A DNA stretch of 64,000 nt from Bryoerythrophyllum caledonicum (Eukaryota; Streptophyta; Bryopsida; Pottiales; Pottiaceae): assembly GCA_963971425.1 (NCBI GenBank), contig OZ020519.1, forward strand, positions 22,980,786-23,044,785, in the 5' to 3' direction. The translations under genes were made by a program, and so were the position numbers. The notes under the pieces were generated by a model. That model was not told the DNA's origin. It ran no database searches and worked only from the letters and a program-made list of their open reading frames with translations. Shown here one piece after another: positions 1,567-42,108 of the stretch; position 1 is the stretch's first letter, and each line of letters starts with the position of its first letter.

Positions 1567-1829
1567 GTCCGCGCCAATCCGCGCCTCACTCCGTTATCGA
1601 AGGCTGTCCGCGGCCATTCCTCTCTTAGTCCGCGGCCATTCCGCGCTCATTCCGCGCTCAGTCCGCGACCATTCCGCGCTCAGTCCGCGGCCATTCCGTG
1701 TTCAGTCCGCGGCCATTCCGCGCTCAGTCCGCAGCCATTCCGAACCAGTGTCGCTTTCAGTCCGCGGCAGTCTGTGGCTGTACGCGGCTACGTCTGCTGC
1801 CAGTCCGCGCCCCAACCGCGCCTGCTCCA
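1567..1829 (+). repeat. Array A: 11-bp-period TCCGC motif array 5' of hAT gene
   Basis: Units such as agtccgcggcc and attccgcgctc alternate, placing a TCCGC core about every 11 bp. It is strongly CpG-rich compared with the AT-rich flanks. It ends about a dozen bases before a TATA box at 1842. On the plus strand the motif reads TCCGC, opposite to arrays B-D. Open frames through the array lack stops only because of its composition. Confidence 0.9.
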
Positions 1830-1841
1830 TTTGAATTTCAG

Positions 1842-1849
1842 TATAAAAT
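1842..1849 (+). promoter_or_regulatory. TATA box of hAT cassette
   Basis: TATAAAAT lies directly after array A and about 150 bp before the transposase ATG. The array-then-TATA order is repeated in four other cassettes in the window, which supports a core promoter. Confidence 0.6.
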
Positions 1850-1994
1850 AGTGTCCTTCCAAGGCGATGGTGCTTAATCCTACATAGTCGCTTTCAAGAC
1901 CTTGGATTCTTTGTACAAGAATGCATTGCTCGAAATCCCATTGCTGAGGAGGGAATTGTTGACCCCTTGTTGGCTCTGAATCACGTGCGACGCC

Positions 1995-4900
1995 ATGCTA
2001 CGTCGGAATTCTGTATGGGATCTATGGTTCGAAAACATGGGCAACGCTCCTTCAAGAGCAACACGACAAGTGAAGTGTCGGTTTTGTTCTCACTCCATGG
2101 TTTATAGAGCCGACAGGATGTTGTCGCACATGGGATACCGTCATCCTAGTAATCTAGGTCGTGACGTCCAACTGTGTAGCATGGTGCCTCCACATGTGCG
2201 TGTGTTGTTTCAAGGTTGTGATGGGATTGTTCCTAATCGTCTTGATGCTGCCAACGATGGACCCTGTCCCCAACAACGTGTTGATGACGAGAATGGGATT
2301 GGAGTGGAACACTTATTGACACAATCTGTGGTGAACGACGTGCAGCAGATTGAGAACTCCCAAACAAGTCGTGGCGTGGAATCCGTACACTTAGATAGGG
2401 AACCTCGAGATCTACGTCAAGCGACGTTGCCTGAGGGCTTCAACATTTCCAAAAGGCAACTCTTGGACAAGGCTTGGTCTAGTGCTTTCTATGAAGCGAA
2501 CATTCCATTCAATATCATTAGGCATCCTGCGTTTGTAAAAGCGGTTCAGGAAACTGCACGCGCACGAATGCCCGCCTACCATCCACCGACCTACAATGCC
2601 ATACGTACGAAGTTGTTGACAAACAAAAAAGCTGATGTACAAACGGCTGTCAATGTAGCCATGGGTGATGCTATATCAAAGTATGGTGTTACAATATGTA
2701 GTGATGGCTGGGACAACGTTCAGAACCGACCTTTACTAAATGTTGTTCAGTCATGCACAAAAGGGGATGTTTTCATAGGCACCATCGATACATCGGGAAA
2801 TTATAAAGACCACTTTTATGTTGCTTCTCAAATCCGACCATTTCTATAAATGATTGGACATGCAAATGTTGTCCAAGTATGTACGGACAATGCTCCAGTC
2901 ATGGCGGCCGCATGTCATGACATCATGCAAGAAATTCCACATCTCTATGTTCAAGGATGCGCTGTCCATTGCTTGGATCTTTTACTGGAAGATTGGGGCA
3001 AAGAAGCGTGGGTACAAAGGATTGTTAAGAAGGCAAGGGTTGTTTGTTTATTCATCAAGAACCACCATGCCCCACAAGCAATATTTCGAAGGTTATCACC
3101 CGATCTTTTTATTTGTTTGCCCGATGAGATACGATTTGCAACAAACTTTCTCACGATACAACGCCTCCTCCAAGTTCGTCAGGCATTGGAGCGGATGGAG
3201 GTTGATGAAGAATGGCATGCTTTTCTAGCGGGATTGCGGACTCAAAATACAAGGGCACATGCAAAAGGCCTTTATGCACGACGCGTTATACGCTTGGATG
3301 GATTTTAGGACGTTTGTGTGAATTTCGAGTACATGGTGTTACCGGTGGTACGTGCTCTTCGTGTGTTTGACGGCAATGCTCCCGCTATGTGTCATGCATG
3401 GAAGGTCATGCATGAATTGGGGATCCATGTTCAAGGATTTCGCAATGTTCCGTTTTGCTTGGAACTAGATTTGGCAACAAGGGCATTAGATGCTTTTAAC
3501 GCAAGGTGGAGGCTCATGATTACTGACCTTCATTTGGCGGGGGCTACGTTGAATCCTTCTTTGCGTGGATGGGCCCCGTTGCACGAGCACGAGCTTGCGA
3601 GACCAATCTTGAATGGTGTTCTTCGGAACCTAGTTACGAGGGAGGATGATCTAGGTTTGGTCCTCAATCAGTACCAAGATTTCATTGAGAGCAGAGGGAC
3701 ATTTGCAGATTCCATGCAACCAAATGTCTTGAATGTACCGCCCCATGAATGGTGGGATGCCATGGGAGGCGGGGCAAAGCAATTGTAGATTATAGCAAGA
3801 CGCATCCTTGCTCAAGTATGTTCTACTTCGGCATGCGAACGCAATTGGAGCATGTACTCTTATGTTCACAACAAATCCCGCAATCGCCTACAACATAGTC
3901 GGGCGGAGGACCTCGTTTACATTTACACCAATTATAGGCTCCTTAGGCATCGAAGAGGAATGAGGGTTGCCCAGTGGCTTGAGTTGAATGGCGTGCATTC
4001 CGATGATGAAAGCAATGAAGACAATTCTGATGATGCAAATGATGATGGCCATCATGTCGATCATGATGGACTTGGTGATTTTGACATGGACGCTGGTACT
4101 TTTGATTTGGACAATGAAGATTCAGATGGTGACGGTGGTGAGGGTCACCGTGATGAGAATAACAGTTCGGATTATGACGGTCTTCACTTTGATGGTGATC
4201 GTAGAACTGTAGATATTGGTGTTTTTGAGTTTACTGAAGGTGAAGAACCACAACATGTTCAATTGCCATCTAACCTTCGCGGGGATGATGATAGGCCGTC
4301 ATTTGGACAACTTTGTGCAGGACAAGGACTCTGGCGTGAACAAGAAGGGGGCGTTTACCACCAGGCCGTCCACGCAAACGTTGACTTGCAATCCCAGCCT
4401 GAAAGTGATTCGTTATCATTTGGTGGGGAAAGACAACATATCCCGGATCACAGGGATGAGGAGGCCACTACACCGGCGGGTGATACGTTTCTTGTGGCAT
4501 GGAGGGTGGTTTGCAATGGCAATTCCAATCTGCCATGTATTACGACTTCAAATGTTCAAGGGTTATCCACGCCTATTGGAGACGTTGTAGTGAATGTGTC
4601 AACCACGGAGGTTGATGTACCTCCCTAAGTTGGAATACAAAATCGGCCGATCACCCGTAGTCATGTAGTTGCGGGGAGATTCGGTGGAGCGACCACACGG
4701 GGGGTCGGTGCTTCATTGGTAGCACTTCAAAACAATCGCCCAAACATTGGACAAGGACGAAATTGTTGGCAATCCATTTGGTCGAATAATGTTCATAGTC
4801 CAACCGTTCGAAGGCAACCTCTCACTCCAGCAAGTGAGCGAGGTCATTCTGTACGCAGGGGTGGAAGGGTGCTTGTAACAAGTGGAAGAGGGATAGTTTC

Positions 4901-5285
4901 GTCCTTAGATGTAGACATCAATGCAATTGTTGATGTAGGTAGAGCACTTCCACATTGCGGGGAGGCTTCTACAAGCACCGCAAGTGCTAGTGGTCGACGA
5001 AGGACTACACAAGGGAGGAAGAGACGTCAAAGGGATCAAGGAATACTAATGCCATTTGTCGGTGAAGCTTACGACCCATCTGACGGAAGACCCAATATGG
5101 ATGACAATGGAATACGTGACATCGACGGCTCTCGTCCAACAAGGAGGTTGGTTATTGGTCGAGACGATAACTTGCAATTGAGAAGTGCTACTCCACAGTC
5201 CGATGATGAACAGAGCACGGATGAATCTGATGTGGATCCACGGTGCATAGAAGAGAATGACCCAACAGTTCGAGTGCGATCTTGA
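1995..5285 (+). pseudogene. hAT-superfamily transposase (BED-like finger, DUF659), nonsense-decayed
   Basis: One continuous frame of 1,097 codons is broken only by TAA at 2847, TAG at 3306, TAG at 3786 and TAA at 4626; no frameshift is needed. An N-terminal BED-like zinc finger (C28, C31, H45, H50) is followed by a DUF659-type region (about residues 190-320, with the SDGW and CTDNAP-type motifs). The hAT C-terminal dimerisation segment follows around residue 610, with CERNWS and the downstream RAEDLVYIY stretch. Next come a very acidic Asp-rich tail (codons about 670-740) and a basic Ser/Arg-rich C-terminus, which is long for a hAT protein. hAT transposases cut and paste DNA flanked by short inverted repeats; I could not identify the element ends. 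The gene lies between inward-facing arrays A and B. I infer that it is inactive. Confidence 0.88.
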
Positions 5286-5461
5286 GTGGATGTCTATTAA
5301 ATTTCCCATTATACATACTACGAGGTCTATTGATATTCTTTGTGTATGTTTTCCATATGTTTCATAATATACTCTTACTTTTTAATGCCATTATTATTTC
5401 AAGACATTCATCTCACACAATAAGGTACCCAGTATGTTGAATGCGAAAATATTTAGGAGTT

Positions 5462-5745
5462 AGCGGACATGGAGTGAAGTGCCCGCAGATATTGCATCGG
5501 ACTGGCGCGGACAGGTCGCGGAATGCCCGCGGAATGCCCGCGGACTGCCCGCGGAATGGTGGCGGACTGGACGCAGACTCCCCACGGACTGCCCGCGGAA
5601 TGGTGGCGGATTGGACGTGGACTCCCCACGGACAGGGCGCGAACGAGGCATGGACAAGACGCGGACGAGACGCGGACAGGGCACGGACAGGTGCGACCCT
5701 ACGGCCGCGGACAAGCGCCGATATGGGCGGACAAGGGCAGACAGG
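5462..5745 (-). repeat. Array B: 11-bp-period GCGGA motif array 5' of RING gene copy 1
   Basis: Between about 5500 and 5600 the period is almost exactly 11 bp (gcggaatgccc, gcggactgccc, gcggaatggtg and similar). Further right it becomes less regular. The motif reads GCGGA on the plus strand, the reverse complement of array A. The block ending gcgaccctacg...gcggac at 5690-5735 is also found at the end of array C. A TATA box follows at 5750. Confidence 0.92.
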
Positions 5746-5749
5746 GGGG

Positions 5750-5757
5750 TATAAAAG
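5750..5757 (+). promoter_or_regulatory. TATA box of RING cassette copy 1
   Basis: TATAAAAG sits five bases after array B. Copy 2 has the matching box at 14124 after its own array. The transcript would carry a leader of several hundred bases before the ATG at 6149. Confidence 0.7.
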
Positions 5758-5799
5758 GGGAGAGAAGAAATATTTTTTGCACACCTTCCCGCGAATCTT

Positions 5800-6148
5800 G
5801 GACGCCCTGACGCACTTGCCTCCACGTTGACGGCGGTGTGCGGGGTTTTCAAGGTGGGAAAGTGGTCCTTTTGAGGACGGAGATTACCCGAAAGGGGAAT
5901 TTTTAGTCCTCAAAAGCATCAGCACAGGTACAGAAGCTGTTGAAGTTGTCAGAGATTTTAAGAAGCCGTGTCTGTGATACTTTTTAACAATCTCTCATCA
6001 ACACTATTTTGAAGTGCTTGCATGGGATTAATTGTAGCACTATTTTGAAGTGCAATTAGTTATAGGCGGCATAATCATATTAGAATAGTTAGCTAGTATT
6101 AGAATAGCAATTAGAAGTATTTCGTAGTGGTTTAGGGTTATTTAAAGC
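5800..6148 (+). promoter_or_regulatory. Conserved leader of RING cassette copy 1 with paired hairpins
   Basis: A block beginning cttgcctccacgttgacgg at about 5816 is shared with copies 2 and 3. Near the ATG, the 16-mer cactattttgaagtgc occurs at 6002-6017 and again at 6038-6053. Each can fold as a 4-5 bp stem with a 7-nt loop. The same pair occurs in both other copies, so it is part of the ancestral leader and not random sequence. Its function is unknown. Confidence 0.75.
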
Positions 6149-8239
6149 ATGGCAACCATGCATAGCGGTGGTGGAGGTGGTGGAGGTGGTGGAGATGGTG
6201 GAGGGAGGAGGAATTTAAATGCGCCAGATTTGGGGGTGGGTCCTTCAAAAGGAGCCAATAAGGCTGCGGATTTGGAGCTAGATATTTACGGAGACCTTAA
6301 TCTTTTGGCGTACTTCGGATGGGAAAGTCTACCGGAGCCATGGACATGTCAGCAGGCGTATGGGCACATTGGTTTTGCTCACCTCAACCGATAGTATACT
6401 CCGGAAGTTCACGAGGATCATTGCCGAACGAAGCAATTGACGTATGCCAACATTACTTCCGTAGAGATAAAATGGAGGTTTTTGGAGATCTTACTAGCCA
6501 TCTCCTACGAAACACGTTGGCCTAAGAATACCATTCCTAGAAGAATAGCTGCGATGGTATACGCGGATTGTGTGTTGCACAAGCGGGTTGATTGGTCGAC
6601 GCTTAATCAAGCTTTGGACCTCCCTGGCAATGTTGGGAAGCATTTAGGCGACGCACTTACATCGAGGTTGCCTATACTATCAATTCCTAAAAATCCCGTA
6701 CCGGAGTGGTTTAGCAAAAAGAGTAGTTTGGTTGATCCACCAAGCCAACAGTTGCCAGCGGATCGAGCGATACCAAAGCCCCGCAATTGAAGGAATAATA
6801 TTGTGCCGGCTGGTGAAGCGCCTCGTGATGGTGGTTCCCAACTAGGCCCCCAGAATGTGGCCCTCGTTCAACATCCTCCGGAAGTCCCCCTCGTCCAACA
6901 AGATGTGGATCAACAAATCGTTGACGAGATATGGAATCAATGTAGTCCGAGATTGGAGGATCTTACTATCGGACATGTGACGGCACAACAACACGGTCAG
7001 TTACGCGGGGAGTATGAAGTGTACAAGGTTGAAGCAGAAGAACGTGCGAAAGAAGTAGCTCTAAAAACGGAATGCTTGGAAGCGGAGAAGAACGAGATGG
7101 TTGCTAGCATGGCCCAATTGCGGATTGAATTAGAAGAAGCCCGCAATTGTAATACGAAATGTGAAGCAAGTATTTCCGCAATGCAAAACGACATAGTCCA
7201 ACTCCATACCGATAGGGAAACCATGATGTTGGGCACGGTGTTGGCGGCATCACGGGCGAGACAATGTGAGGCTGAGATAGCAAAGATTATTGAAGAGTGG
7301 ACATCCAACCAGAAGCTGAGAGCCTTCTTACTTACATCTTGGCCGACGTTGGAAAAAATGTATCCAAGTAGATGGGATGACATGGACCCAGAAGTCACTA
7401 CTGCCAATGGTAGCATCGATTGGGCGCGCATTCAAGAAGATCACCGTTTTGATATCCATGAGAAGGGCAGAGATGGGCAACATAAAATATGGGCAAATGC
7501 GGGGACAATGACCACAGAGGGTCAAACTTGTCCCATTTGTCTATATCTATGGGGCCCGGAAGGGTGTTATACGCTCGCAGCATGTGGACATTCATTCCAT
7601 CCACAATGTCTCATTGAGCATATGATCCAAAGTCGCTCATGCATCATTTGTCATTCGCCATATCATGCCCGTCTATATTTGCAATTTGGCTTGAGAGATT
7701 TCATGCCGACACATTGGGAGTATCGTCAACAATACTTTCCAAATTTTGACGTAGGCACTGATGAAGGGAAACCCCTTAAATGGAATTGGAGATTCAACGT
7801 ATCACATGCAGAGCTGGTTGCAGCAAACGAAGCATATGGCACCTTAAAAGACCCAACGAACATACTGCGGGCGGCGGAGGGGTTGTATCCTAACCAACCA
7901 CCAGATTACGGTCTGAAGATGTTTTTCTACAATGTAATGGGGTGGGATTTTGATCGTGAGACACAGACAATATTGCATGGGCTTGGACCTGCACCACATT
8001 ACAACTCATCCGGAGAGCTGGCGATCACTGGTGCGGAATTCAGGCGTATGTATCGTGCGGTGGAAGAAGTCTCAGAACTATGCAATGCAACGGTGGACTT
8101 GGTTGCGGAAAGAACGTATCATCAACCCCGGCTACATAGTTTGGCCCTTGACTTTATCTTGAACGATGTTTCCCCAGAAGTCAAGGCTATCGTCGATGGT
8201 CTACGGAATAGACAGAGACCGGAAACAGAGGTGCCATGA
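6149..8239 (+). pseudogene. Coiled-coil RING-H2 protein, cassette copy 1 (two stops)
   Basis: One frame of 697 codons is interrupted by TAG at 6392 and TGA at 6788. The Gly-rich N-terminus is followed by an unrecognised conserved block (about codons 40-210) and an acidic coiled-coil at about 7000-7330. A RING-H2 finger (CPIC, CGHSFHPQC, CIIC; about 7528-7670) has all eight zinc ligands in C3H2C3 order. A conserved C-terminal block contains the KMFFYNVMGW and YNSSGE motifs. RING-H2 domains usually recruit ubiquitin E2 enzymes, so an E3 ligase-like ancestor is an inference. The family is present three times in 13 kb, always behind a GCGGA array. I recognise no named homologue. Confidence 0.8.
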
Positions 8240-9565
8240 GCTACTTATAGACCTCAAACGCGCCGTAATGATGGTGCCTCCTCGTCGCGCTAAGGGCATA
8301 GAAGATAAATAGTGCGTACTAATTCAGCGTATTTTTTTCTTTAGGCAGATATCGAATAGTTTAGGTTCCTAGAATCGCAAAATCTATTAAATATTTAGTA
8401 GAAAAGAGAGATGTAATGTACATGTGTACAAATTCCTTCTTGATTTTGAGAAAACAAATTTAGAAAACTTCCATCTACCGGAAGCACATTTTCCAATTCT
8501 GGCTACATGTTCTTCTAGAAACTTTCTAATTTCTTCTAGAGTAGACCTTTGTAAAAAAAGAATATTGATGTGCAAGTTGCATATCAAAATCATATTTTCT
8601 TGTATTATTTATCCGCTTATTATTTAAAAAAAATCTTTGGAAAGTAAGACTTGAAATGGATGTAAAATAATTCCAATAAAGACAGTATTTGTTGTTTATT
8701 GCGGACAATTCTTCGAATATTTCATCGTTTTTTTCTTCATCTTTGTTCGGCTTGGATTCCTCTCCCTATAACTTAGATTTAACGTTTAACATTCAAGTAA
8801 GATTTTTCTATGTAACATCGTTATCATCATTTCCAAGGTGTTGTAACGAATTAGACGAGGTAAAGAAAAGGCAACGCATATCTCAGAAATTGGTAGAAGC
8901 AGTGGAGGGTTGGCAAATTACAAATTCAGATTTACCATTTGTAGGAAATGAAATCCTTCTATTAATTCCCTAGTTGACAATGTGTGCCATTTTCCCTAAT
9001 TCCATGACTTTACATGAAATGCTCTTCTTTTGTATAGACAATAAATGATTTTCGATGTTGGTAATGACACACCTGAAAATGTATTGTTGCAAATGAAGAA
9101 CTTCTGAATTGAAATAGAATGAGAAGGAATTAAAAAAAATTGAAATGAGAACCTTGTTCCTTTGGTTCCCTCTCATTCTATTTTAATTGAATGCTTTAGT
9201 GATAAATCTCCTCCTCCTTCTCATTCTAATTTAGTTTAGATAGTCATTTGCGATTAACCCTCTTCCATTCCCTCCCCTTCTAATTTTATTAAGATATTAT
9301 TCATTATTGTCCCTTGGTCCTTCGTTCCATGTTCATTATCCTTCCAATTTAATTGGGATCTATTACCCCTAAAGGCAAGATCCCTTACGTGGCCCGTCCT
9401 GCCATCTTTGACAAGGGCGGGTCACTCCCATGACCAAAATAATTCCCCAACCCGCTCAAAGACTAGTTCAATCAACCACTCCCATAAAGAGACATTAAAA
9501 TCATATTTAAAGCAAAATTTTGGATTCTCAATCGTAAGGTCTTGAAATATAATTCTGTATGAATC
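8240..9565. other. 3' region of RING copy 1, then AT-rich intergenic
   Basis: Positions 8268-8560 match 15163-15440 downstream of copy 2 (shared agtgcgtactaattc and tttagtagaaaagaatga-type segments), marking a duplicated 3' region. Beyond that the sequence is AT-rich, with a small inverted repeat around 9105-9130 and 9166-9188 (gaatgagaagg / cctctcattc). I see no convincing gene. Confidence 0.6.
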
Positions 9566-9570
9566 CAAAA

Positions 9571-9593
9571 CCTAAACCCTAAACCCTAAACCC
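9571..9593. repeat. Short interstitial plant-type telomere repeat
   Basis: About three consecutive CCCTAAA units lie in AT-rich intergenic DNA. This is the TTTAGGG plant/green-algal telomere sequence read on the opposite strand. It is too short to be a chromosome end. Confidence 0.8.
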
Positions 9594-9885
9594 AAGTAAA
9601 CAATTATATTGATATCCATTCTTTATGTTTTCCATATGTTTCACAAAATACTCTTACTTTATGGAGATTTCCGATTCCTTCAAATTAAGACTAGTAAGTG
9701 TTAGGTGTTAAGTGTTACACATAAACAAGAGATTATTCAGTATCGTGAGACTGTTAGCTACTGGTGGAAAGTTTACCAATAGAGCATTAACTGCGTAGGC
9801 CATTGCACACTTTCAAATAAATGTGACTGAGATTAATATTGGAATAACAATAGTGCAAAAAGAACACTTCAGTTGACTTGATGTT

Positions 9886-10161
9886 GGGCACCTCCGTGAT
9901 TCCAAGCGCTTACAAGAGTCTCAATGCCCTGAAGTGGAGGAAGCCACTTTTACTTGGTTTACGACAATGCAGGAAAATAATGTAGTTCTATTTGATGACC
10001 TTGTGGTGGCTGCTGTAAAGAGATTTTGCGCATTACTTCCAAGAGGTGCTAACGAGAAGGAGCTTCTATTTTCTCATGGATGGGTGCAAAATTTCAAGAA
10101 GAGATATGATATCAAGGGCTATACCCGTCATGGTGAAGACGCGCTCAGGGGACATTTATGA
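9886..10161 (+). pseudogene. Tigger/pogo-type transposase fragment (CENPB-type HTH)
   Basis: About 90 codons resemble the second DNA-binding (CENPB-type helix-turn-helix) domain of pogo/Tigger/Tc5 transposases: an EEATFTWF segment, then a GWVQNFKKRYDIKG segment in the expected spacing. The frame ends at a TGA (10159-10161) and I see no catalytic DDE domain downstream, so this is a truncated relic. No terminal repeats were found. Confidence 0.7.
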
Positions 10162-11012
10162 AGAGGTTTAAAAAAATAAGGAATACATCAAAACACTTGG
10201 TATCTCAGTACATGCACTTTCTAAACCCGGAAAATATAGATACACAATGCCGTGCTAAAAAAAACATGGACGACAACAGAATTTTTTTTAACAATTTATG
10301 TTATATTTTTAGAGGAGGACTAGCAGTTGGCACTTGCTTTGCAACGCATTAGTTCAACCATTTTAATGTAGTTTTAATATCACAAAATATTTTTAAAAAA
10401 AAGGTAACAACAATCCACATAAAATATAAATATATCTTTGAAACCCATGCATGAATTTTTATAATGTAATAGAATAGAATAGGAAAAAATTAATTAAGTT
10501 TTAGATTTTTAACATGGATTTAAAAAATGTTATGAATGTCAAATTTGTAATCAAGAGTTTCAATCTTATTTTGGATAAGCACAAATTGCAACACACAAAT
10601 GCAAATTTTACACACCCACAAACTCAACTTGCAATTACAATCTCAAATTCACACACCCACAAACTCAATTTGCAATTACAATCTCAAAACTTGCAATCTC
10701 ACCTCACTACTTGTAATTTCAATCTCCACAACTCAAATATGCAACTTTGCAACTCCAACTTTGTATGCCAACCTCCAAGCTCACAACTCCAACTTCACAA
10801 CTTTTTCACTCGAAGTTTACAACTCATAATTTACAATTCAATCTTTTAGTGCTTAACTCAAAAAAAAATTTGAGCGTCCAATTTCTAATCAAAAGCACAG
10901 ATTCCAACACACAAATGCATATTTGTCACACCCAAAAACTCAAGCTAATGCTTTGCAACGCAATAGTCCAACCATTCTCATGTAGTTTTTATATTACAAT
11001 CGACCTTGAGGT
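10162..11012. repeat. AT-rich intergenic with CA/AAT-rich simple repeats
   Basis: From about 10570 to 10850 short phrases such as aactcaatttgcaattacaa recur irregularly. The Asn/Gln/Thr-rich open frames here derive from this low complexity. I see no gene. Confidence 0.65.
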
Positions 11013-11676
11013 CTAAATCTATTACCATCTTGTTAAGCATGATGTTAGCTCCTTACACACCAATTTATAGAGGTAGAGACAGGGTGTAGCATATTCAAAA
11101 CAAGTGTGCAAGGAGTGGAGGCTCGAAATTTGTTAATTCACACTTTAATTTTTTTTGAACTTAATATGTTTTCGATTGATAATCCAAATGGTCAATAAGA
11201 AGGTTTACATTACATATTGTTGTGGAAAAAATAAAAAGTGAAAAATATGAAGATCTCTAGGTTTTATGTGGAAAAGAAGAAGTTTTTTTGGTACCTTGCC
11301 CAACAATGAGTGACAATGTGTGAAAATGTTTGACTTGGGTTGGTATGCTATTTTTCACTAAAGACAAGAATTTTTTTTTGACAACATGAAGGGAAATAAT
11401 ATTACTTGCGAGTACTGAAAATCTCATTTTCAATAGAGTGTGCTATCAAAAGTTTTTGGAGGTGCCCGAGGTGCCCGCCCTCCCCATTTGAAATTAAAAA
11501 CCCTATAACTTTTTCATCAAATGTCCAATTTAGGAAAAAATTGTTTTCCCACTGAACTCTTGGTAATGTCTTTCTATATTAAAAATCTCAAAGTGGAATG
11601 TTGGAAATTGACACTATAGGAACCTGACCGATTTTTCAAAAAGCCAAATTTGGACACTTGGTCCTTTAGGGGTTAA
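11013..11676 (+). mobile_element. Dispersed repeat, copy 1, right end TTAA-bounded
   Basis: About 480 bp (11013-11490) match 63385-63860 in the same orientation, including a shared atgaagatctctaggttttat-type block. The right end, ggtcctttagggg followed by TTAA at 11673-11676, matches the terminal motif of the MITE at 35284-36090. I infer a non-autonomous piggyBac-type (TTAA) element that is truncated or diverged at its left end. It has no coding capacity. Confidence 0.7.
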
Positions 11677-13827: not shown

Positions 13828-13918
13828 TACAGCGGGCCTAAGTGTTAACAAAAAGAATGCTCCCAACCCCTAACACTTCTTGAGGTCTGACTGTAAAGGG
13901 AACGTGGGAAATATTTAG

Positions 13919-14115: not shown

Positions 14116-14123
14116 TAGAGTGC

Positions 14124-15162: not shown

Positions 15163-15777
15163 AGGTGCCTCCTCGTCGTGCTCCGGATATGGAATGTAAA
15201 TAGTGCGTACTAATTCGGCATATGTGTTTCATGAGGCGGATATCAAATAGTTTAGGTGCCTAAAGTCGCAAAATCAATTAAATATTTAGTAGAAAAGAAT
15301 GATGTTGTGTACATGTGTACAAATTTCTACTTGATTTTGAGAAAACAAATATAGAGAACTTCCATCTACTGGAGGCACATTTTCCAACCCTCTCTACGTG
15401 TTCTTCAAAAAACCTTCTAAGTTCTTCTAGAGCACACAACCATGTAAAAAAGGAAGTTTGATGTGCAAGTATTGTTTTAAAGGCTTACTTTCTTGTATTC
15501 ATAATCGGCTTTTTTTTGTTTTTGTTTTGTTTTTGATGTATTTATTCCCTTGAAGACTACACCGTTCCTTGAATATAGTGTTGAATATAGTGTAGACAAA
15601 ACTATTTGAAATTTCCTACACTAATTGAAAATTTACATGCAATTTTTGACTGACACACACTTGCTTGAGAACAAATACCCAATCAGAACTTGGCATGCAC
15701 ATGCTTTTATGGAAATTAGTGTGATTGATCTACATCAATAATCCCTCTATACTATATTCAGACTGTGTTTAGTGTAC
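15163..15777. other. 3' region of RING copy 2 and AT-rich spacer
   Basis: The first 280 bp match the sequence downstream of copy 1. The rest is AT-rich with a duplicated gaatatagtg phrase near 15575 and no gene. Confidence 0.6.
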
Positions 15778-16058
15778 TGGACTGGGCGCGCGGACTAGGG
15801 GTTAGTGGGCTAGGACTGGGCGTGCTGACGGGTTGCGGACTGAGCGAGGACAGTTCGCGGACTGGGCGCGAACTGAGAGCGGACGGTTTAGACAAACTAG
15901 GAGCGGACGGGGATCGGACTGGGAGCAGACAGTCCGCGTCGCGCCCGCGGACTGTTCACGGACGGGATGCGGACGGGACGCGGACTGGACGTGGGCAGTT
16001 CGCGTCCTGTCCGCGGGCTGGGCAGGGAATGTCCGTGGACAGGGCGCGGACGGGGTGC
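15778..16058 (-). repeat. Array D: GCGGA motif array 5' of RING gene copy 3
   Basis: This is a degenerate array of gcggac and gaac(g)gg cores, with 10-12 bp spacing in many stretches and less regular ones elsewhere. It has the same strand sense as arrays B and C. It is more diverged, in keeping with the more diverged copy 3 gene. Confidence 0.8.
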
Positions 16059-16064
16059 ACATGT

Positions 16065-16500
16065 TATAGAAAGCGGAAGGGGTCCCCATGGTTTGACACT
16101 TTCTTAGTCCTAGAAAGCCTTGACGGACTTGCCTCCATGTTGACGGCGGTGTGCGGGGCTTCAAAGGGGGAAATTGCTCCTTTTGAGGACCTTCATTTTC
16201 CCAAGGGGAGATGTTTGTCCTCAGAAACATCTGTTTTTTAACTATTATAGGCGATGGTTATGCCAACGGTGGGGTTTCAGCAATCTATCCAAGCATGACA
16301 ACATTATTTTGAAGTGCATGCTTCAATTTGTAGCCTAGGCAACACTATTTTGAAGTGTAGGTAGTCTTCCGATCTTTGGAATAGAGGAGTTGTTCTAGAA
16401 TTCTTATATGATAATAGATAATGTGGGAAAGTAAATATATATTATTGGAAGTAACTTTTGTGATACGGGAATCTGTAGAAGACTTTAGAAGAATTTCATG
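16065..16500 (+). promoter_or_regulatory. Degenerate TATA and leader of RING cassette copy 3
   Basis: TATAGAAA at 16065-16072 sits where copies 1 and 2 have their TATA box. The cttgcctccatgttgacgg block recurs at about 16128. The hairpin pair is present at 16302-16317 and 16343-16358, with small changes and 41-bp spacing. Confidence 0.6.
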
Positions 16501-18729
16501 ATGGAAAGCGGAGGTGGCAATCAAGGAGCACGGAGGATGATGGTTGACAAACCAAGCAGGAGGGTTTTACAGTGAAAAGGACAAAGAGGAACCCAACAGA
16601 TTTGGAGATGGAGGTATACGTAAACCGTGATCTTCAAGCAAAGGAGGGTTGGGAATGAGTGCGTGAGCCATGGACAGTCGACAATGCATTGGAGTACATC
16701 AAGTTTGCGCATCTCGACAGATGGTGGCCTGCGGAGCTCCACCCTAAACATTGTGCAGCGAAAGCAGTCACGTACAGACAGATCAATGACGTGCATGTGA
16801 AGTGGAGGTTCTTCGAGATCCTACGTGCCCTTTCTAACTTGGAGAAATGGCCGAAAAATAATATTCCTAGATCCATTGTAGCATTGATGTATGAAGAATA
16901 TCAATTAGGAAAGCAAGTGGATTGGTCAACGATTCACGACCCCTTTTCAGGTGGTCGGAGACTTGGACGCCATCTTTCAGCAAAGAAACCTCGAGAGATT
17001 CTAAGAAACAATGCCCCTCAATGGTTCCTTGATAACCCTACCTTGTACGACGATCCAAATGATGAAGTGCCGTTCAATCGAGAAATAATTGTTTCACCAA
17101 GGAAGAGTAGCGGTCGAAAGCGTAGAGAAAGGAAGGTTGAGGCCACACATTGCAAAGAATTGGACAAGCATGCTCCAAACGAGATTGGGGAGGGGTCAAA
17201 CCCACTTTCAGCAACTTTGGAGATGGCCAATGCTATTCAAAGCAAAGCCGCTGACGCCCCGAAGAAGTTTGATGAAGATAAATATGGTGAGTTACAGGCA
17301 CAATTGGAAGTGCTTAGTGTGGAAATAAAGAGGTTGCAACATGGACGAGACGATGATGTGGAAACGGTGTCAAAAGTACGTGCGCTAGAGACTGAAAAGA
17401 AGAACTTGCTTGCTGAAGTGACCCATCTACGCAATCAAGTCAATCAAGTCAACAATAGCAATGAAAAGTACATGATTGAAGTTGCAGACTTAAAGAGGGA
17501 GCTACAAGAAATCAAGGCACAACATGTAGCAGCGGAGATGACGCATGCAAGTTTGCAGCAAGAGTTGGATGAATTAAAAGCATATCGGGAGAACAAGGAA
17601 TCGGCCCGAAACAATCTTAAATTGTTGGTTTCAACAATAATCGATGAGCGCAAAGAGATGATGCTCACGACGGTATTTGCCGTGGCACGGACACGGCAAT
17701 ACGAGGCGGAATTCTAGAGTATATGCGCTGAATGGACATCGGAGAAGAAGTGAAGGACCCTTTTGCTCACATCATGGCCTCGTGATGAAACCATGTATCC
17801 AATCAGCTGGGACGATAGTGATCCGTCGCTACTATTGAACAACAACAGTATTGATTGGAGGCTTGTGACAGAAGAGGATTACCGTTGGGACATTGGAGAA
17901 GTGCATGATCATCCAACTAAAATGATTGGAAAGCCGTTGTAACAAAGACTACACCCCAGGACATCTGACGGATCATCATGTCCTATCTGCGATAATCCTT
18001 GGGGTCTTGAAGGGTGTTATATGATTGGATCGTGTGGCCATTCGTTCCATCCGCATTGTCTAATCAAGAGTATGATTCGTTTGCGTACTTGCGGTGTATG
18101 AAGGGCGCCATTACATCCACGTTTGTATCTTCAATTGGCCTACAAGATATCATGCCAAGTCACTAGGTGTATCGTCAAAATGATTATGACTTTGCACTTG
18201 AAGACTTCAATGGGAACCCTGTTGAAGGAGTTGGAGACATAATATGTCCAAGGCACAATTGTGACATACCTTTCAAGGAGAAGAATTGTTAGATGATCCG
18301 GACAAACTAGTACATGCAGCAAATGAGATGTATCCTGACAAACCGGCAGATTACGACATGAAGATGTTTTTTTACCAGACCCTAGGGTGGCATTGGAATC
18401 GTCAAAGAAACGAATTGGTGCACGGCTTAGGACCGCCACCATATTACAACTCATCTGGCGAGCGAGCTGTGGGGGATCTAGAACTACGAAGGGCTTATTG
18501 TGATACAACACTACCTGCAAGAACTGGAACGGAGGAATTGTATTGGGAAGAACGCTACCGTAAAAAACGACTACTTGTGGCGGCGCTCGATGCCATTTTG
18601 GAAGACGTCGCCCCGGAGGTGAAGGAATGGCTTAATGGTAAGAAGAAACCTCGATATCGGCAAGGTCATGGACATCATGGATATCGAACGCGGAGTAATG
18701 TTCGTGCAAGAGATGTTGCAAGAGCTTAG
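16501..18729 (+). pseudogene. Coiled-coil RING protein, cassette copy 3 (frameshifted)
   Basis: This diverged paralogue of copy 1 has the same domain order. The N-terminal block includes PWTVDNALEYI, against PWTCQQAYGHI in copy 1. A longer coiled coil spans 17280-17717. The RING finger (about 17970-18100) has its last cysteine codon replaced by TGA. The conserved C-terminal block is at 18286-18729. At least two frameshifts (near 16570 and between 18140 and 18286) and several stops (17715 and others) are present. It is clearly non-functional, but the protein order is conserved over the full length. Confidence 0.78.
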
Positions 18730-19057
18730 AGCACCACATTAATTTGTGGAAGTAAAGGATTAAAGATTCAGTAAACTATGACCAAGTCTAATTTCCCGAT
18801 TGAATTAGTGTAACCAAAGCTCTCGTGTTCTTATCTTTGACATTACGAACATAGAATTCACAGTGAGTTGTACACAACGGGATATTTTTTGCCCATTTTG
18901 AATGCATTTATATCGAGGTTCAAAGCAAATTTGGACATTACCGTTCTCACATTACCAAAACTTGTAGTTACACGGCGACCTTGTTGTCTCTCTCAAACCC
19001 CACCCTTACAGCAACGGCAATTTCAAAGAACAATTCAAAGGAGAAAAATGACGCCCA
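18730..19057. other. Spacer between RING copy 3 and kinase cassette
   Basis: Mostly AT-rich sequence with no gene seen. It ends at array E. Confidence 0.5.
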
Positions 19058-19245
19058 TTCAGCGGACAAGTGCGGATAGTCCGCGGGCAATCCGTTGCCA
19101 GTCCGCGGGCTCTTCCAACCTAGTCCGCGCCCCATCCGCGGCCAGTCCGTGCCCAGTACGCGGCCAGTCTGTGCCCAGTACGCGACCAGTCCGCTCCCCG
19201 ACCGCGCTGTTCTCCAGGTTCCCAACCCTATCCGCAATGTTCCCG
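19058..19245 (+). repeat. Array E: TCCGC motif array 5' of kinase-like gene
   Basis: Units such as agtccgcgggc, agtccgtgccc and agtacgcggcc are spaced about 11 bp. The plus-strand sense is TCCGC, as in array A. It ends about 15 bp before TATATAAAGG. Confidence 0.85.
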
Positions 19246-19258
19246 ACCCCTTGCAACC

Positions 19259-19268
19259 TATATAAAGG
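19259..19268 (+). promoter_or_regulatory. TATA box of kinase cassette
   Basis: TATATAAAGG follows array E and precedes the ATG at 19475 by about 205 bp. The leader does not share the hairpin pair of the RING cassettes. Confidence 0.65.
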
Positions 19269-20689
19269 CGGATAGGCTATTGACGTCCTCACTTTTTTCC
19301 CTCCATTTCCTTGCCAAATAGGAACCCGAGACCTTTTTGCGCGAGCACCATTGCACGGGTTTCGAGGGTATAGGAGTTGGGAGAGACAAATGCGGGGGGA
19401 ACCCTTGTCATTTTTTTCCAGACTCACTCACTTTCGCACTGCACTTTAAGTGACCGGTTAATTACTTTACAGAAATGGCCAATAACAGGGTGCATTATCT
19501 AGATGCAGACATGCAACTCCACGAAGCTCATCAGGTGGAAATTCAATCAACCACTACTGCAGCCAATTGTGTAAGCGGTGGTATGTTGGCGAGAGGACAA
19601 AGTAGTGGAAGTGGGCGCAGTGACAGGGGTCGCAGACACGGCATGGAACAACTGCACCAAGAATTTCATGCACTTGGACGAAATAATTCTCGTGGGTCGC
19701 AATCACATTCACGAGGCACAGTAGGATCACGAAGGGTTCTACGAGGATCAGCGCGGGGGACCACTGAAGCAATGCGCTCACAAGGATCACAAAGTTTGAG
19801 CGGATTTCGACACCCGGGAGCTTGCAGTTCAGGCGAATCAAGTGGTGAGCCCGCAGCAGGAGAACCATCGTTGAGGGCTGTTCAACATGGTGCGGTACCA
19901 TCTACAACAAATTCCTTGGTTCTAAGCGAACCTTCAGTTGGAGCGGGATGAGGGCGGGATAAACGGCCAGCTCTTTCAGAAGACTCAGAGCCCTACAAGA
20001 AAAGAGTAAGGACAAGCCATTTGGATGCAATGAGCAAGAAATTTAAGTTCAGGGTTGTAGCAGATATATTATTTTGGATGATAGAGAAATGTCTATCCAG
20101 GTAGGAGAAACGGTACTTGTGTAACGACGCTACAGGATTAGAAGCTATGGAGGCAAGAGTGGTACTCATTATCCAAAATATTGCCAATGAAGAAAAATTT
20201 CGCGAAGATAAAATGAGACATTCAATGGACACATGGCCCATATTGTTTGCCAAACAAGCTATTCACAACCCCGTGAAGACTATTTGGGATGTCTATTACA
20301 AGGAAGATGTAAGCGAATAGGCAATGGATGTAAAGTTATTGTTTGAGAGACTCAAAGAGGGGGTAGAAGCAATCAAGCCGAAAGGGAGATCTAACCTCGC
20401 TATTCCTTGGATTGATCAAGATTTGGTTGCGCGGGTTGCGAGTAGAGGTCGCGAAGGTGTAGTGTGGCTTCCAATGCATGCGGAGGTAAAGGCGTTGGAT
20501 ACTAGAAATTATGAAGGAGGCTTTGGAGTTGTCCGACGTGTGAGTATTGACGGTATAAGTTGCATATCAGCACACATGGACTTTGCGGGGAAAACAATGA
20601 AGGAGGGTAGTCGTGAAAAAAACCGGGAGAAACGTTCAATTGAGGCGCTAGCGTTGTCGTGTAGAGAGGGGAGCGCTTTGAGAATTCAC

Positions 20690-22760
20690 GGGGAATCTGG
20701 CTGCAACCGGAATAGATGGCAAGAGAGTCCAGTCGTGTCTTCAATTCTTCAAATCTTCATATCTTCATCTCTTCGGCTCTTCAAACAGCTCCCCGTTGGC
20801 CTATCCTGTGGTGGCTCTAAACGGGTTAAGGGTAAAGATAAGGTGATAAGAACCCACGGCCTCGGACGGGTAAAACGGGACGGCCAGACCACAAGCTGAA
20901 ACCGTCCGAAAGATTGGCTCCTAAAATTCAAACCCACGGTGACCAGCAATCGCGCCTCATCGGTGGGAACAACATAAATACGACCGTGTGGGTGATCAAC
21001 CCCACTTCGCCGCAACAAAATTTACGAAGCAGAATTGAAAAGAACTAGCCTCCAAATCCGGCTGGGAATAACAAAAAAAAGACAACGAGCCTCCAAATCC
21101 GGCTAGGAATAACAAGCCACAAGCCACAACACACGAGTCTTCATGTCTTCTTATCTTCAAGTCTTCAAGTCTTCAAGTGTTCAAAAACACTAAGAAACTC
21201 AAAAGAAGTGTTCAAAAACACAATGGAAAAATTTCCGTCAAGGCTGTAACCTTCAAACAAGTGCCACAGATGACTCAAAATTCCAACTACTAAGTTTAAT
21301 AACTTTCTGGAAAGCTAACACAAATAAATAACACTCCTCCAAATTTCAAATCATTCTAAACTACTGTCCGAAAGTTATGTGAGTTCAAAGTTCCGCCCTT
21401 CTAGAAATTCAATCGCTCATAACTTCTTCTTCAAAACTCCAAATCTTAATTGTAATAGCTTTTTGGAGAGCTATAACAATGGTGCACACACCTTTTTAAT
21501 CTCAAACCATTCTAAACCACTGTCCAAAAGCTATGGCTTGTTGAAACCTCTGCCCTCTCAATGGATGGCCTCGGGTCTTCACAATTTCAAACCTTCATAA
21601 CTTTTGCAATTCAACTCTAATCAACTTGAATGATAAGTGTTTGGAAAGCTAAACAAAAGTTCTATAACTCCTGAAATTTTCAAAGAAAGACGCAAAAACT
21701 ACAAACTTTGGTGGCCGCCCGAATCTCTGCTCCTCTTCGTTGGGTGGCAGCAGACCCTCCTCCACTCACACGCTTGTAACTTTTTTCCCACAACTCCAAA
21801 TCAAGCGAAAAAAATCTCTCTAGAAGCGCATCTCAAAGAAGAAGAAACCCTCAAAATTTCATTTAAAAAAATTGCTTACAACCAGAGTTCTCGCCCATCA
21901 AACTCTCGGCTCTCTACACACACACACATTTTTCTCTCAAAGCACACTAACTCCTTTTTCCCCCAAAACCCGACTAGGAGGGAGAGAGAAGATGCCTACC
22001 TACCCTCTAGACCCCTAAGGTGGATAAGATCAGCCCATGTGCATATCACATGGGCCTCAAAACACCCATTGGCTCTAGGAAAACTCAAAAGATAAGTATC
22101 TACTTATCTTTAAAGGTCAACAAACCTTTAGAGTTCTAACTAGGAGGTAAACTACCCTCTATCTACCATCTTTTAACTTCTAACATTCAAATGAAACACA
22201 AAACACAAAAATTTAGTACAAAGCTTCAATCAAAAACAAGTAGAGGTAAAAACTAAAGTCAAAGAACAGTGCTACTCCATTTGCAAGAACTTGAGGATGC
22301 GCTTGATAGTACTTGCGATGTAATCTGCACGTTGAGTCTTTGTCAAAGGATTCACTGGCCATTCTAACCAACGATGGTGGCCAATGCTTAGCTCGATTGG
22401 CCTAGGTATACAGAAATAATGGTCTTCGTTCAGGCCCTCGAAACTGCCTTCAAATGTCACTTCACGGGTGCCCGGTTCAACACATCCAGTTTGAAGTAAG
22501 ATTACTAAAACACGCGCGTCCTTTTGGAGATTACCATGCCAACGCTGCTCAACACGAGGCTGCTTTAGCGGACGAGAAGATCCAGCTTCATCTTGCGGGT
22601 GAAATGGCAATGGTGAAGAAACCGCCGGCTGGGATGGTTGAATTGGCAACTGAGACAAGGAAAGCTGTAAATCTACCTCCGGTTCAGACTCTAGATCTTG
22701 TGACTCCATAAAAACCCTCCAGTTCGACATATTGGTTCGAAGTTCAAATCCAAACACAAA
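20690..22760 (-). mobile_element. Gypsy 3'-end fragment inserted in the kinase gene
   Basis: This contains a minus-strand accessory reading frame homologous to the one after the chromodomain of the gypsy element at 40408-48148. It is followed on that strand by non-coding, LTR-like sequence. That part carries degenerate repeats of about 165-190 bp (similar phrases near 21300, 21460 and 21650) and a tctcaaatccggct-type duplicated motif near 21050/21090. Exact ends and target duplication were not found. gag and pol are missing. Confidence 0.6.
22272..22709 (-). CDS. Gypsy accessory protein, fragment-borne copy
   Basis: Intact 145-codon frame beginning MESQDLE. A variable Pro/Ser-rich N-terminus (SQLPIQPSQPAV) is followed by a conserved C-terminal block with GHHRWLEWPV and a terminal amphipathic stretch (YIASTIKRILKFL). 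The frame at 45711 begins MDSQEID and carries GHYRWLQGPM with a similar end, so the two are homologous and occupy the same place relative to the element 3' end. I recognise no known domain. Its role is unknown; the conservation suggests that it was once under selection. Confidence 0.6.
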   Translation of the reverse strand: MESQDLESEPEVDLQLSLSQLPIQPSQPAVSSPLPFHPQDEAGSSRPLKQPRVEQRWHGNLQKDARVLVILLQTGCVEPGTREVTFEGSFEGLNEDHYFCIPRPIELSIGHHRWLEWPVNPLTKTQRADYIASTIKRILKFLQME

Positions 22761-23987
22761 CTCTAAGAACGTAAAGGAATACTTCGAATTGGTGAATATT
22801 GTTTACGGCTTTCGCCTTTTAAACAATTCCACGAGCAATAAGCGTCACCTTGAAGCTACTGGAAGCGTCACCAATAAGTTTCGTCCTCCTAATCAAAGAT
22901 CTTTCCAAAAAGGTAAACAAGTAAATATATTATACACTGAAAATATTTACATCAGGAGAGCGTGTCCAGTGGACCATACAAGGGTTATCAAAATCCAGTA
23001 CCTAGATAGAAGAATATACGAGTCGTAAAATCTATGGTGGAACGGTGGCTCACTAGCATCCATTTGGAGGATCGATTCAAAATATGACGAGGAACACGAG
23101 GATGATATTCTAAAAACAACTGGAATCGACCTTGAGGCTCGTATGGAACTATGCGTGTATCGTAAAAATCGGGCCTATTTAGCGTGGGCACTACTGTGCA
23201 TCATGGATGTGATACATTCCCAGCGCCTATTGTACAATGACTTGAGCCCCAACAATATTATGCTTCATTTTCCGCTAGAGTAAAAAAATGTAGTATACAT
23301 TGGGGTGTGTGATTGGGGAATGGCATCATGGGACGGCGAAGACAAGATGTCAAACTACGGCCGACCCTCTAGTACAGAGGTAGGTGCTTACCAAGTTAAG
23401 TATCGTCATGCTGCCCCCGAGCTATTCCATGTGTATGGGAAGCCCGGAACACCAACATTCCCGAGGAGAATGGGAATAAAGCATAACCACAATCATAGAT
23501 CTGAGGCGTATGCAGTGGGGTACTTGGCAAGGAGGATCTACAACCGCGATTTCTCTTTAAGCTTGTTCCTAAAGAACAAAGATCCGAGTTCATTGTCCAA
23601 GCGATTTGAGCAAGCCATGGACGAGTTGTTGAAACCCGATCGACTAGAGAGATCAACCGTCATGCATGTAGTAGACTTGTTGAAAGGACCGCCCTACAAC
23701 CTAGCTACACCATGGGATTTCTTCCGCAATGAGTAGTATATAGTATATTGTGATTTCATAGTCCTTAGATACTGTAGGGTATGTAGCATCTTCTCTATGT
23801 TGTGAAGTGTTGTCTAATTTGTACTCGGTTATTTGCAAGAAGAGAATGCCTTTTTGGACTTCCCTGTAATTTTGAATGAAGAACAACTTTGTACAAATTG
23901 TTTTGATTTGGTCTCCCAATCCCGCCCTTTGTATCTTCAGAAATAAAAATGGAATAACGAAATTCAAAAATATCCTAACTACCTATC

Positions 23988-24772
23988 CGCGCTCCCCCAC
24001 TCCCAATCCGCGTTGCATTGGCGCCCCCACACCTAGGCCGGTGCGAGTCCGCGATCAGTCCGCGGCCAGTCCGCGGCAGTGTCCGCGATCAGCCCGCAGA
24101 AAGTGTCCGCAGCCAGTCCGCAGATCAACTCTCAATCCGCGGGTCCCCATTCAGTCCGCTGTGTATCCGAAGCCAGTTCGCGGATCCCCATCCCGTCCGC
24201 TACGTATCCGCGGCAGTGTCTGCAGCCAGTCCGCGGGACTTCATCCAGTCCGCGGGTCCACATCCAGTCCGCTACGTATCCGCGGCAGTGTCCGTGGCCA
24301 GTCCGCAGCAGCGTTCGCAGCCAGTCCGCAGATTCGCATCCAATCCGCTGCGTATCCGCAACCAGTCCGCAGGTCCACATCCAGTCCGCTACGTATCCAC
24401 GGCCAATCCGCAGCAGTGTCCACGATCAGTCCGCAGCAGCGTTTGTAGCCAGTCCGCGGGTCTGCACTGAATCCGCGGATACACATCCAGTCCGTTGTAT
24501 ATCCGCAGCGAGTTTGTGGGTCCGCACTGAGTCCGCGAGACCAAGTTCATTCCGCAACGTATCCGCAGCCAGTCCGCGGGTCTGCACTCAGTCCGCGGGT
24601 CCAAGTTAATCCGCTGCGTATCCGCAGCCAGTCCGCGGGTCTACACTCAGTCCGCGGGTCCAAGTTAATCCGCTGCGTACCCGCAGCCTGTCCACGGTAG
24701 TGTCTGCACGTAGTCCGCGCCATGTCCGCGGACGGTCATCGCATGTCCGGGTGCAGTCCGCTCCTAAACCGC
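23988..24772 (+). repeat. Array F: longest TCCGC motif array (about 785 bp)
   Basis: TCCGC cores repeat at 11-13 bp spacing, with a longer-order unit around gtccacatccagtccgct and tatccgcagccagtccgcg. This is the largest of the six arrays and has TCCGC sense. It starts about 250 bp after the kinase gene stop. No TATA box or gene of the family follows, so it either bounds the kinase cassette or has lost its own gene. Long overlapping frames in all phases reflect the lack of A/T-rich stops. Confidence 0.88.
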
Positions 24773-42094: not shown

Positions 42095-42108
42095 TACGAA
42101 CCGTACAG

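What the first reader, a model, noticed from the sequence alone, without database searches (positions are those of the whole stretch)
1567..24772. One promoter-array type drives three unrelated mobile-type gene families
Six CpG-rich arrays of an 11-bp-period GCGGA/TCCGC motif were found. Five of them (A-E) lie 5-15 bp or a little more upstream of a TATA-like box and then a gene: a hAT transposase, three coiled-coil RING genes, a kinase-like gene. These proteins share no homology, so the shared array suggests either one large element family with several genes or convergent recruitment of the same control sequence. I know of no described element with this layout.
Basis: partly seen in the sequence, partly recalled or inferred. 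Interest (0 to 1): 0.88.

Follow-up and report, generated by a model that had tools for sequence, protein, structure and literature searches.

The report
Multi-gene plant transposon with shared switches
The repeat arrays and the unrelated genes behind them belong to one large jumping element, copied many times in this plant genome, in which a hAT transposase travels with RING and kinase genes that carry the same array in front, perhaps a shared switch the element uses to keep its genes on.

Summary
In detail: six GCGGA/TCCGC arrays of 11-bp period at 1.57-24.76 kb, five just upstream of a TATA-like box and a gene. In the window's own genome the gene order recurs: 27 of 42 listed hAT copies have a listed RING downstream on the same strand (0.24 expected), 20 of 62 RINGs a kinase downstream, 28 of 51 type-I RINGb genes a kinase downstream. 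Three of five copies tested have CAGGGTTGTC-type inverted repeats at both ends; two of those three show near-perfect 8-bp target duplications. It is a hAT transposon of 18-21 kb; the window copy is decayed, about 23.5 kb, left end lost. The array triplet occurs 2,048 times against 14 for a reversed control. Arrays at different promoters share one predominant motif within a subfamily (GCGGACTG or GCGGATGG) and differ between subfamilies, like the target repeats of Arabidopsis VANDAL anti-silencing proteins. I propose that they are the element's common control sites. Binding, promoter activity and anti-silencing are inferred. My searches listed no such hAT element.

The parts
1511..25039 (+). 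the window's copy of the multi-gene hAT element; left about 200 bp incl. left TIR lost or replaced, right TIR kept
   Evidence: DNA homology to the C11 copy begins at 1511; homology to the right end of the C7 copy ends at 25038, in separate pieces between; right TIR found, no left TIR in the window at up to 4 mismatches in place
1568..1808 (-). array A (TCCGC on +), upstream of hAT; TATA-like at 1842
1995..5285 (+). hAT transposase gene, one frame, 4 in-frame stops (2 TAA, 2 TAG)
   Evidence: DUF659 and Dimer_Tnp_hAT; relative P0078 72% over the whole query; stops
5463..5731 (+). array B (GCGGA), upstream of RING1; TATA-like at 5750
6149..8239 (+). RING1 (RINGa type) coiled-coil RING gene, 2 in-frame stops
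   Evidence: zf-RING_2 E 7.8e-6, just under the curated cut-off; relatives; genome copies
8600..13840 (.). AT-rich interior with ~175-bp satellite-like repeats; partly shared with the C11 copy (direct and inverted pieces)
13947..14135 (+). array C (GCGGA), upstream of RING2; TATA-like at 14124
14530..15162 (+). RING2 (RINGa type), internally deleted relative to RING1, 1 in-frame stop
15790..16077 (+). array D (mostly GCGGA), upstream of RING3; TATA-like at 16065
16498..18730 (+). RING3 (RINGb type, relative of P0002), broken by stops and frame changes
19062..19272 (-). array E (mostly TCCGC on +), upstream of kinase; TATA-like at 19259
19475..20654 (+). kinase gene, first part, 3 in-frame stops
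20655..22958 (.). 2.3-kb insert in the kinase gene flanked by a 5-bp direct repeat AGCGT (20650-20654 and 22959-22963)
   Evidence: junction placed by relatives
22959..23736 (+). kinase gene, second part (catalytic YND and DWG motifs), 2 in-frame stops
   Evidence: protein kinase domain in 20 of 23 aligned relatives
23986..24761 (-). array F (mostly TCCGC on +), between kinase and right end, no gene behind it
   Evidence: same place in the C9 copy
25025..25039 (.). right terminal inverted repeat CGATAGACAACCCTA (2 mismatches to the 15-base query)
6001..6053 (+). twin GCACTATTTTGAAGTGC motifs in the RING1 5' leader (also 14373-14425, 16301-16358)

Best explanation
The arrays belong to one family of large hAT transposons (18.0, 18.8, 19.2 and 20.6 kb in the four copies measured) that carry four kinds of gene: hAT transposase, two RING/coiled-coil genes (RINGa, RINGb) and a protein kinase. 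SHOWN: recurrent gene order in many copies, common TIRs, 8-bp target duplications (7 of 8 letters) in two of three copies, an array beside the core promoters of the genes in the copies read, and one predominant array motif per element subfamily across unrelated promoters. INFERRED: the arrays are cis-control modules with repeats about one helical turn apart, read by one sequence-specific factor, most likely encoded by the element, which co-activates or de-silences all its genes. Motif turnover between subfamilies would then reflect co-evolution of factor and target, as in VANDAL/VANC. Which protein binds is not known; the hAT N-terminal zinc-finger-like region and the RING proteins are the first candidates.
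For: Co-linearity: hAT-RING 27 of 42, all downstream and same strand (0.24 expected); RING-kinase 20 of 62 (0.39 expected in any orientation); 12 hAT-RING-kinase triples. RINGb-kinase: type I tandem 28 of 51, type II divergent 6 of 10 (0.19 expected for all 61). Ends: exact 17-base left TIR in 4 of 5 copies, right TIR (0-1 mismatch in 15) in 4 of 5, TSD 7/8 in 2 of 3 copies with both ends. 200-bp left end: 41 matches listed, 269 candidates. Contig L121 of another genome: hAT, RING, then the start of an array. P0078 (best hAT relative) and P0016 (second-best kinase relative) both list a 15,563-bp contig. Motif coherence: GCGGACTG:GCGGATGG is 48:1 in the ten arrays of three type-I copies and 10:143 in the ten arrays of three type-II copies (counts, summed in 137); 6-mer cosine 0.65 between promoters of one copy, 0.24 between the same promoter of two subfamilies. 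Array triplet 2,048 places against 14 for the reversed control. In the C9 copy one array lies between the divergent RINGb and kinase core promoters.
Against: No binding, expression or methylation data. L121 has no GCGGA array between hAT and RING (lag test), and the C7 copy has an insertion between RINGb and the nearest array. Array F heads no gene. One of the three two-ended copies shows no TSD, and the two TSDs are 7 of 8; in the other two of five copies one end was not found. 15 of 32 array clusters on C1 (1.5-20.1 Mb) have no listed element feature within 5 kb; only 40-70 of hundreds to thousands of candidates are listed per search, and some of these clusters have a different repeat, but I could not read them. 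15 of 42 listed hATs have no listed RING within 20 kb, and 30 of 42 lack the full ordered triple. Homogenised arrays could arise by gene conversion or copying without a binding factor. Arrays E and F were read in only three copies.
Confidence: 0.75

Rival explanations
1. The arrays are promoter elements read by a host transcription factor; the element encodes no factor for them.
For: Position directly upstream of TATA-like boxes; a helical-turn period suits cooperative binding by any factor; GC-rich, CpG-rich sequence.
Against: A host factor should hold the motif constant, yet it differs as a set between two subfamilies in one genome.
Confidence: 0.3
2. The arrays are transposase-binding subterminal repeats of the Ac type, needed for excision rather than for expression.
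For: Arrays A and F are the outermost arrays; in Ac, repeats in the terminal 200 bp bind transposase (PMC3260210, passages).
Against: The outer ~120 bp carry different repeats (CGTCACGA/TGTGACG type) at both ends (read by eye); B and E lie far inside, at core promoters; A and F are in direct, not inverted, orientation.
Confidence: 0.1
3. The arrays are functionless tandem repeats grown by slippage and spread between promoters by gene conversion.
For: Copy number and spacing vary widely; GC-rich repeats are slippage-prone (general knowledge).
Against: They recur at the same promoter positions with the core kept while spacers vary, in both subfamilies.
Confidence: 0.12
4. Independent mobile families recruited the same control sequence.
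For: The proteins share no domain in the Pfam scans; each gene type has listed copies with no listed partner.
Against: Fixed order and strand in dozens of copies, shared ends.
Confidence: 0.02

Closest known systems
Ac/Ds-like hAT transposons
   Same: hAT transposase (DUF659 + dimerisation domain), (C/T)AGGG TIR start, 8-bp target duplication (here 7 of 8 letters), short repeats inside the ends (Ac features from passages of PMC3260210)
   Different: Ac is 4.6 kb with a single transcript; here 18-21 kb with RINGa, RINGb and kinase genes and long promoter arrays. That paper calls gene capture a rare feature of hAT elements.
VANDAL / VANC anti-silencing system (Arabidopsis)
   Same: Multi-gene DNA transposon; short motif at high density, same orientation, in tandem repeats of non-coding regions (upstream of VANA, introns of VANB and VANC); motifs turn over between subfamilies (PMC5735166 passages; PMC10398659 outline and passages)
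   Different: VANDALs belong to the Mutator group (recalled); no search with a VANC sequence was run here; the binder and any effect on methylation are unknown here
Spm/En of maize with TnpA
   Same: An element-encoded protein activates its own element, correlated with DNA demethylation (cited in PMC10398659, passage): the kind of mechanism proposed
   Different: CACTA ends and unrelated transposase, no RING or kinase (recalled)
Starship giant transposons of fungi
   Same: Large element with cargo genes (search listing only)
   Different: Fungal, classified by a tyrosine recombinase (listing); here a hAT with TIRs and a recurrent gene set

Membership tests
hAT superfamily | hAT transposase with DUF659/RNase-H-like part and C-terminal dimerisation domain | tested here: met
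   PF04937 and PF05699 above curated cut-offs in the window's frames
hAT superfamily | short terminal inverted repeats, (C/T)AGGG start in Ac-like members | tested here: met
   CAGGGTTGTCTATTGTG exact at the left of 4 of 5 copies; right with 0-1 mismatch in 4 of 5; both ends in 3 of 5; window right end with 2 mismatches
hAT superfamily | 8-bp target site duplication | tested here: inconclusive
   7 of 8 letters in 2 of 3 copies with both ends, none in the third
hAT superfamily | N-terminal BED-type zinc finger | tested here: inconclusive
   C-x2-C followed by two H seen by eye in the frame; no BED match in the Pfam scan
hAT superfamily | cut-and-paste movement | not testable with these tools
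   no second individual or expression data
VANDAL (anti-silencing system) | Mutator-type transposase (recalled) | tested here: not met
   transposase is hAT type
[quoted passage not shown]
VANDAL (anti-silencing system) | motif set differs between subfamilies in a concerted way | tested here: met
   GCGGACTG:GCGGATGG 48:1 versus 10:143; cosine 0.65 within copy, 0.24 between subfamilies (20 arrays of 6 copies)
VANDAL (anti-silencing system) | element protein binds the motif and removes DNA methylation | not testable with these tools
   needs binding and methylation data
CACTA (En/Spm) | CACTA terminal repeats | tested here: not met
   ends are CAGGGTTGTC

The most novel reading that the evidence does not exclude
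A hAT lineage has evolved its own address-tag system: each subfamily writes one short motif in helical-turn arrays at all its promoters, and an element-encoded, sequence-specific factor, working with the element's RING ligase and kinase, removes silencing only from its own kin. It would be an anti-silencing system convergent with VANDAL/VANC, in a different transposon superfamily, with ubiquitin and phosphorylation functions as possible effectors.
Probability: 0.38. Interest if true: 0.9.

Novelty: new variant of a known kind. Interest (0 to 1): 0.76.

Why it matters
The best-known hAT element, Ac, has one transcript; this family carries RING and kinase genes as well, has dozens of confirmed copies and thousands of unscored candidates, and marks its promoters with one motif set that differs by subfamily. 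It gives a natural test of how transposons target activation or anti-silencing to their own copies, with two subfamilies in one genome as each other's control. It also means that many RING and kinase genes a genome annotation would list here are transposon genes.

Tried and rejected
Convergent recruitment by unrelated families: rejected by co-linearity. Giant virus or other viral origin: no relatives of RING, kinase or hAT in viral contigs (the tool warns that records near the window's genome may be left out). Altered genetic code to explain the in-frame stops: rejected; all three stops occur, many genome copies of RING and kinase and some of hAT have no stop, and P0078 reads Q, W and Q at three of the four hAT stops. 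TIR search in the window alone failed because the left end is lost; the ends came from comparing copies. My first idea that RING3 is inverted in the window was wrong: in subfamily I RINGb is tandem with the kinase, in subfamily II divergent. Rfam: nothing at gathering score. L122 and L123 carry other hAT pieces; by eye no RING in their frame lists. A kinase search of L121's own MAG gave one weak match, judged irrelevant. Two coincidences of contig length among short contigs (3,297 between P0021 and P0070; 2,929 between P0011 and P0121) show that equal length proves nothing for short contigs; the 15,563 and 476,656 cases are less likely chance but remain indirect.

Literature: ten searches. Among the rows listed, whose titles and abstract starts are what I saw, none describes a hAT element with RING and kinase genes or with such arrays; several listings are capped (6,735 papers, 20 listed), and two searches returned nothing. 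Passages were read of PMC5735166, PMC10398659 (also its outline), PMC13317346 and PMC3260210. Most subscription papers are not held.

Rows folded or dropped before counts: RING list 63 rows to 62 loci (two pieces at C1:17.21 Mb joined); RINGb list 73 rows to 61 loci (12 second pieces left out). hAT 42 and kinase 68 rows were used whole. Listed rows are the scored best of 3,420 (RINGa), 3,423 (RINGb), 3,103 (hAT) and 2,237 (kinase) first-look candidates. One search used hand-typed array ends for C, D and E that were off by 3-7 bases; one search replaces those distances.
Full report
What is there. Six arrays of GCGGA/TCCGC with an 11-bp period lie in the first 25 kb of the window; a scan of the window finds no other paired cores. 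Five are followed by a TATA-like box and a gene on the + strand: hAT, RING1, RING2, RING3, kinase. The sixth, F, lies after the kinase and heads no gene. The genes are broken by stops, frame changes, an internal deletion and an insert.

Relatives. The RING, kinase and hAT proteins have relatives with uninterrupted frames in mostly metagenome-derived sets: 14, 63 and 55 hits at E <= 1e-3 (only the 7,992-7,995 candidates sharing most words were scored). The best hAT relative (P0078, 72%) and the second-best kinase relative (P0016, 68%) both list a single 15,563-bp contig; a RING (P0013) and a kinase (P0039) both list one of 476,656 bp. P0018 is a kinase whose first ~120 residues match the tail of hAT P0080 at 83% and whose rest matches kinase P0017 at 98%, as if hAT lay upstream of the kinase, though a misassembly is possible. 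A 6.3-kb contig in a cyanobacterial MAG (L121, CADCWO010000266.1; I take it for eukaryotic contamination) reads hAT tail, an open 855-aa RING frame, and then the start of a TCCGC-bearing array of 20/21-bp period. It has no array between hAT and RING, which counts against a universal layout.

The genome. The window is C7:22,980,786-23,044,785 of a 437-Mb assembly in 894 contigs. Its name is not given; that it is a land plant, perhaps a moss, is my inference from gene content read by eye, not a result. RINGa, RINGb, hAT and kinase have 3,420, 3,423, 3,103 and 2,237 first-look candidates, of which 62, 61, 42 and 68 loci were scored and listed; many of these are open frames, on many contigs.

Co-linearity. 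27 of 42 listed hATs have a listed RINGa within 20 kb; all 27 are downstream on the same strand (0.24 expected by chance). 20 of 62 RINGs have a listed kinase downstream on the same strand within 20 kb (0.39 expected in any orientation); one more RING has one on the opposite strand. 14 of 42 hATs have a kinase downstream on the same strand within 25 kb, and 12 hAT-RING-kinase triples are in order, in three of which the kinase is more than 20 kb from the hAT. 15 of 42 hATs have no listed RING within 20 kb. RINGb of type I (74% or more to P0002) has a kinase within 10 kb in 29 of 51, 28 of them tandem downstream and one on the opposite strand; type II in 6 of 10, all 6 divergent. The window is of the tandem kind.

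Ends. Three loci were read with flanks (C7, C11, C14). All three carry TCCGC array, hAT, GCGGA array, RINGa; the C7 locus goes on to RINGb, array, kinase, array. Pairwise alignments begin at a common left end, CAGGGTTGTCTATTGTG. In five further copies, whose ends were fetched at predicted places, the left TIR was found exactly in 4 and the right (0-1 mismatch) in 4; three have both. Target duplications: catacatg/catatatg and gtacgcgc/gtacgcac (7 of 8 each), and none in the third. From these positions the spans are 19.2, 18.8 and 18.0 kb; the C7 copy spans 20.6 kb. A 200-bp left-end query gave 41 listed matches among 269 candidates. The window copy has no homology to the other copies left of 1511 but keeps the right TIR at 25025-25039. 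Its part from 1511 to about 15,000 matches the C11 copy in direct pieces at 87-95% and two inverted pieces at 95-97%, so the AT-rich part belongs at least partly to the element, with indels and rearrangement.

Arrays as a set. In the C9 copy (L160 and L161 end to end) the arrays lie at 418-883 before hAT, 6055-6806 before RINGa (TATA at 6892), 15882-16332 between divergent RINGb and kinase (TTTAAAA-like and TATATAAAGG on either side) and 18820-19185 between kinase and right end. Genome-wide the triplet GCGGA-N6-GCGGA-N6-GCGGA occurs 2,048 times against 14 for the reversed control. Of the 32 clusters formed by the first 100 listed places (C1, 1.5-20.1 Mb), 17 lie within 5 kb of a listed element feature (about 0.3 expected); 15 do not. 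Some of those carry a visibly different repeat, others may belong to unlisted copies; I could not fetch them. In 169 kb of other stretches and the last 39 kb of the window there is no GCGGA-N6-GCGGA pair.

Motif by subfamily. Twenty arrays of six copies were compared. The window, C11 and the left C7 copy carry mostly GCGGACTG repeats (48 against 1 GCGGATGG); C7, C14 and C9 mostly GCGGATGG (143 against 10 GCGGACTG; sums). Arrays E and F were available only from the window, C7 and C9. 6-mer cosine: same copy, different promoter 0.65 (27 pairs); same subfamily, different promoter 0.67 (42); other subfamily, same promoter 0.24 (28); other subfamily, different promoter 0.22 (72). The L121 array is nearer the second type (0.30-0.43 against 0.08-0.18). 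Copies within a subfamily are related, so the pairs are not independent.

How it may work. Shown: one transposon, shared arrays at core promoters, motif concerted within a subfamily. Inferred: one factor reads all arrays of an element. The closest precedent is VANC21, which binds a 9-base motif arrayed at high density in one orientation in tandem repeats of VANDAL21 non-coding regions, with different motifs for VANC6 (PMC5735166, passages; PMC10398659, outline and passages). CpG-rich arrays would be methylation targets, so a factor that keeps them open could control all the genes at once. The kinase family keeps glycine-loop, lysine, HND and DWG positions in most aligned members (by eye), and six cysteines and a histidine of the RING are invariant in the 12 aligned members, so both may be active enzymes.

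Membership. It is a hAT element by transposase domains and ends, with the TSD test not fully met. It works, perhaps, like VANDAL but is not one: the transposase is of another superfamily. I found no description of such a hAT element in the searches named under Tried and rejected; that is not proof that none is in print.

Noticed in passing
window 5749-6148, 14119-14530, 16062-16498; L121 2447-2827; RING leaders in L160, L141, L144, L161: The RING 5' leaders hold a conserved ~110-base segment and twin GCACTATTTTGAAGTGC motifs (6 sites in the window at up to 2 mismatches, all in RING leaders). RNAalifold gives hairpins with 51 pairs, 6 with two-sided changes, but a positive covariation term, so a structure is not established.
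   Followed up: partly
window 20655-22958: Insert in the kinase gene with a 5-bp direct repeat; about 0.9 kb of it (22048-22964) recurs at 83% beside the right end of the C7 element, so it is another repeat family. It holds a 176-aa frame on the - strand (22272-22802) that looks, by eye, related to a frame at 45615-46001.
   Followed up: partly
G000 C7:5,242,172-5,242,589 (L147): Two elements of different subfamilies lie head to head with their left TIRs abutting, one lacking its first two bases.
   Followed up: partly
L160-L161 and the genome lists: RINGb has switched strand between subfamilies: tandem with the kinase in type I (28 of 29 pairs), divergent in type II (6 of 6 pairs), where in the C9 copy both share one array.
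   Followed up: yes
L121, L122, L123: hAT sequence of eukaryotic look sits in contigs filed under Synechococcales, Halorubrum and Lachnospiraceae MAGs, which suggests contamination in public prokaryote genomes.
   Followed up: no
window 33064-33573 (-), 38219-38743, 46943-47644, 40994-45580: Frames that look by eye like Tc1/mariner DDE transposases and a Ty3-type polyprotein with chromodomain (names recalled, no family scan run; frames).
   Followed up: no
window 1995-5285: At three of the four in-frame stops of the hAT frame the relative P0078 reads Q, W and Q, as expected of C-to-T or G-to-A changes (by eye).
   Followed up: no
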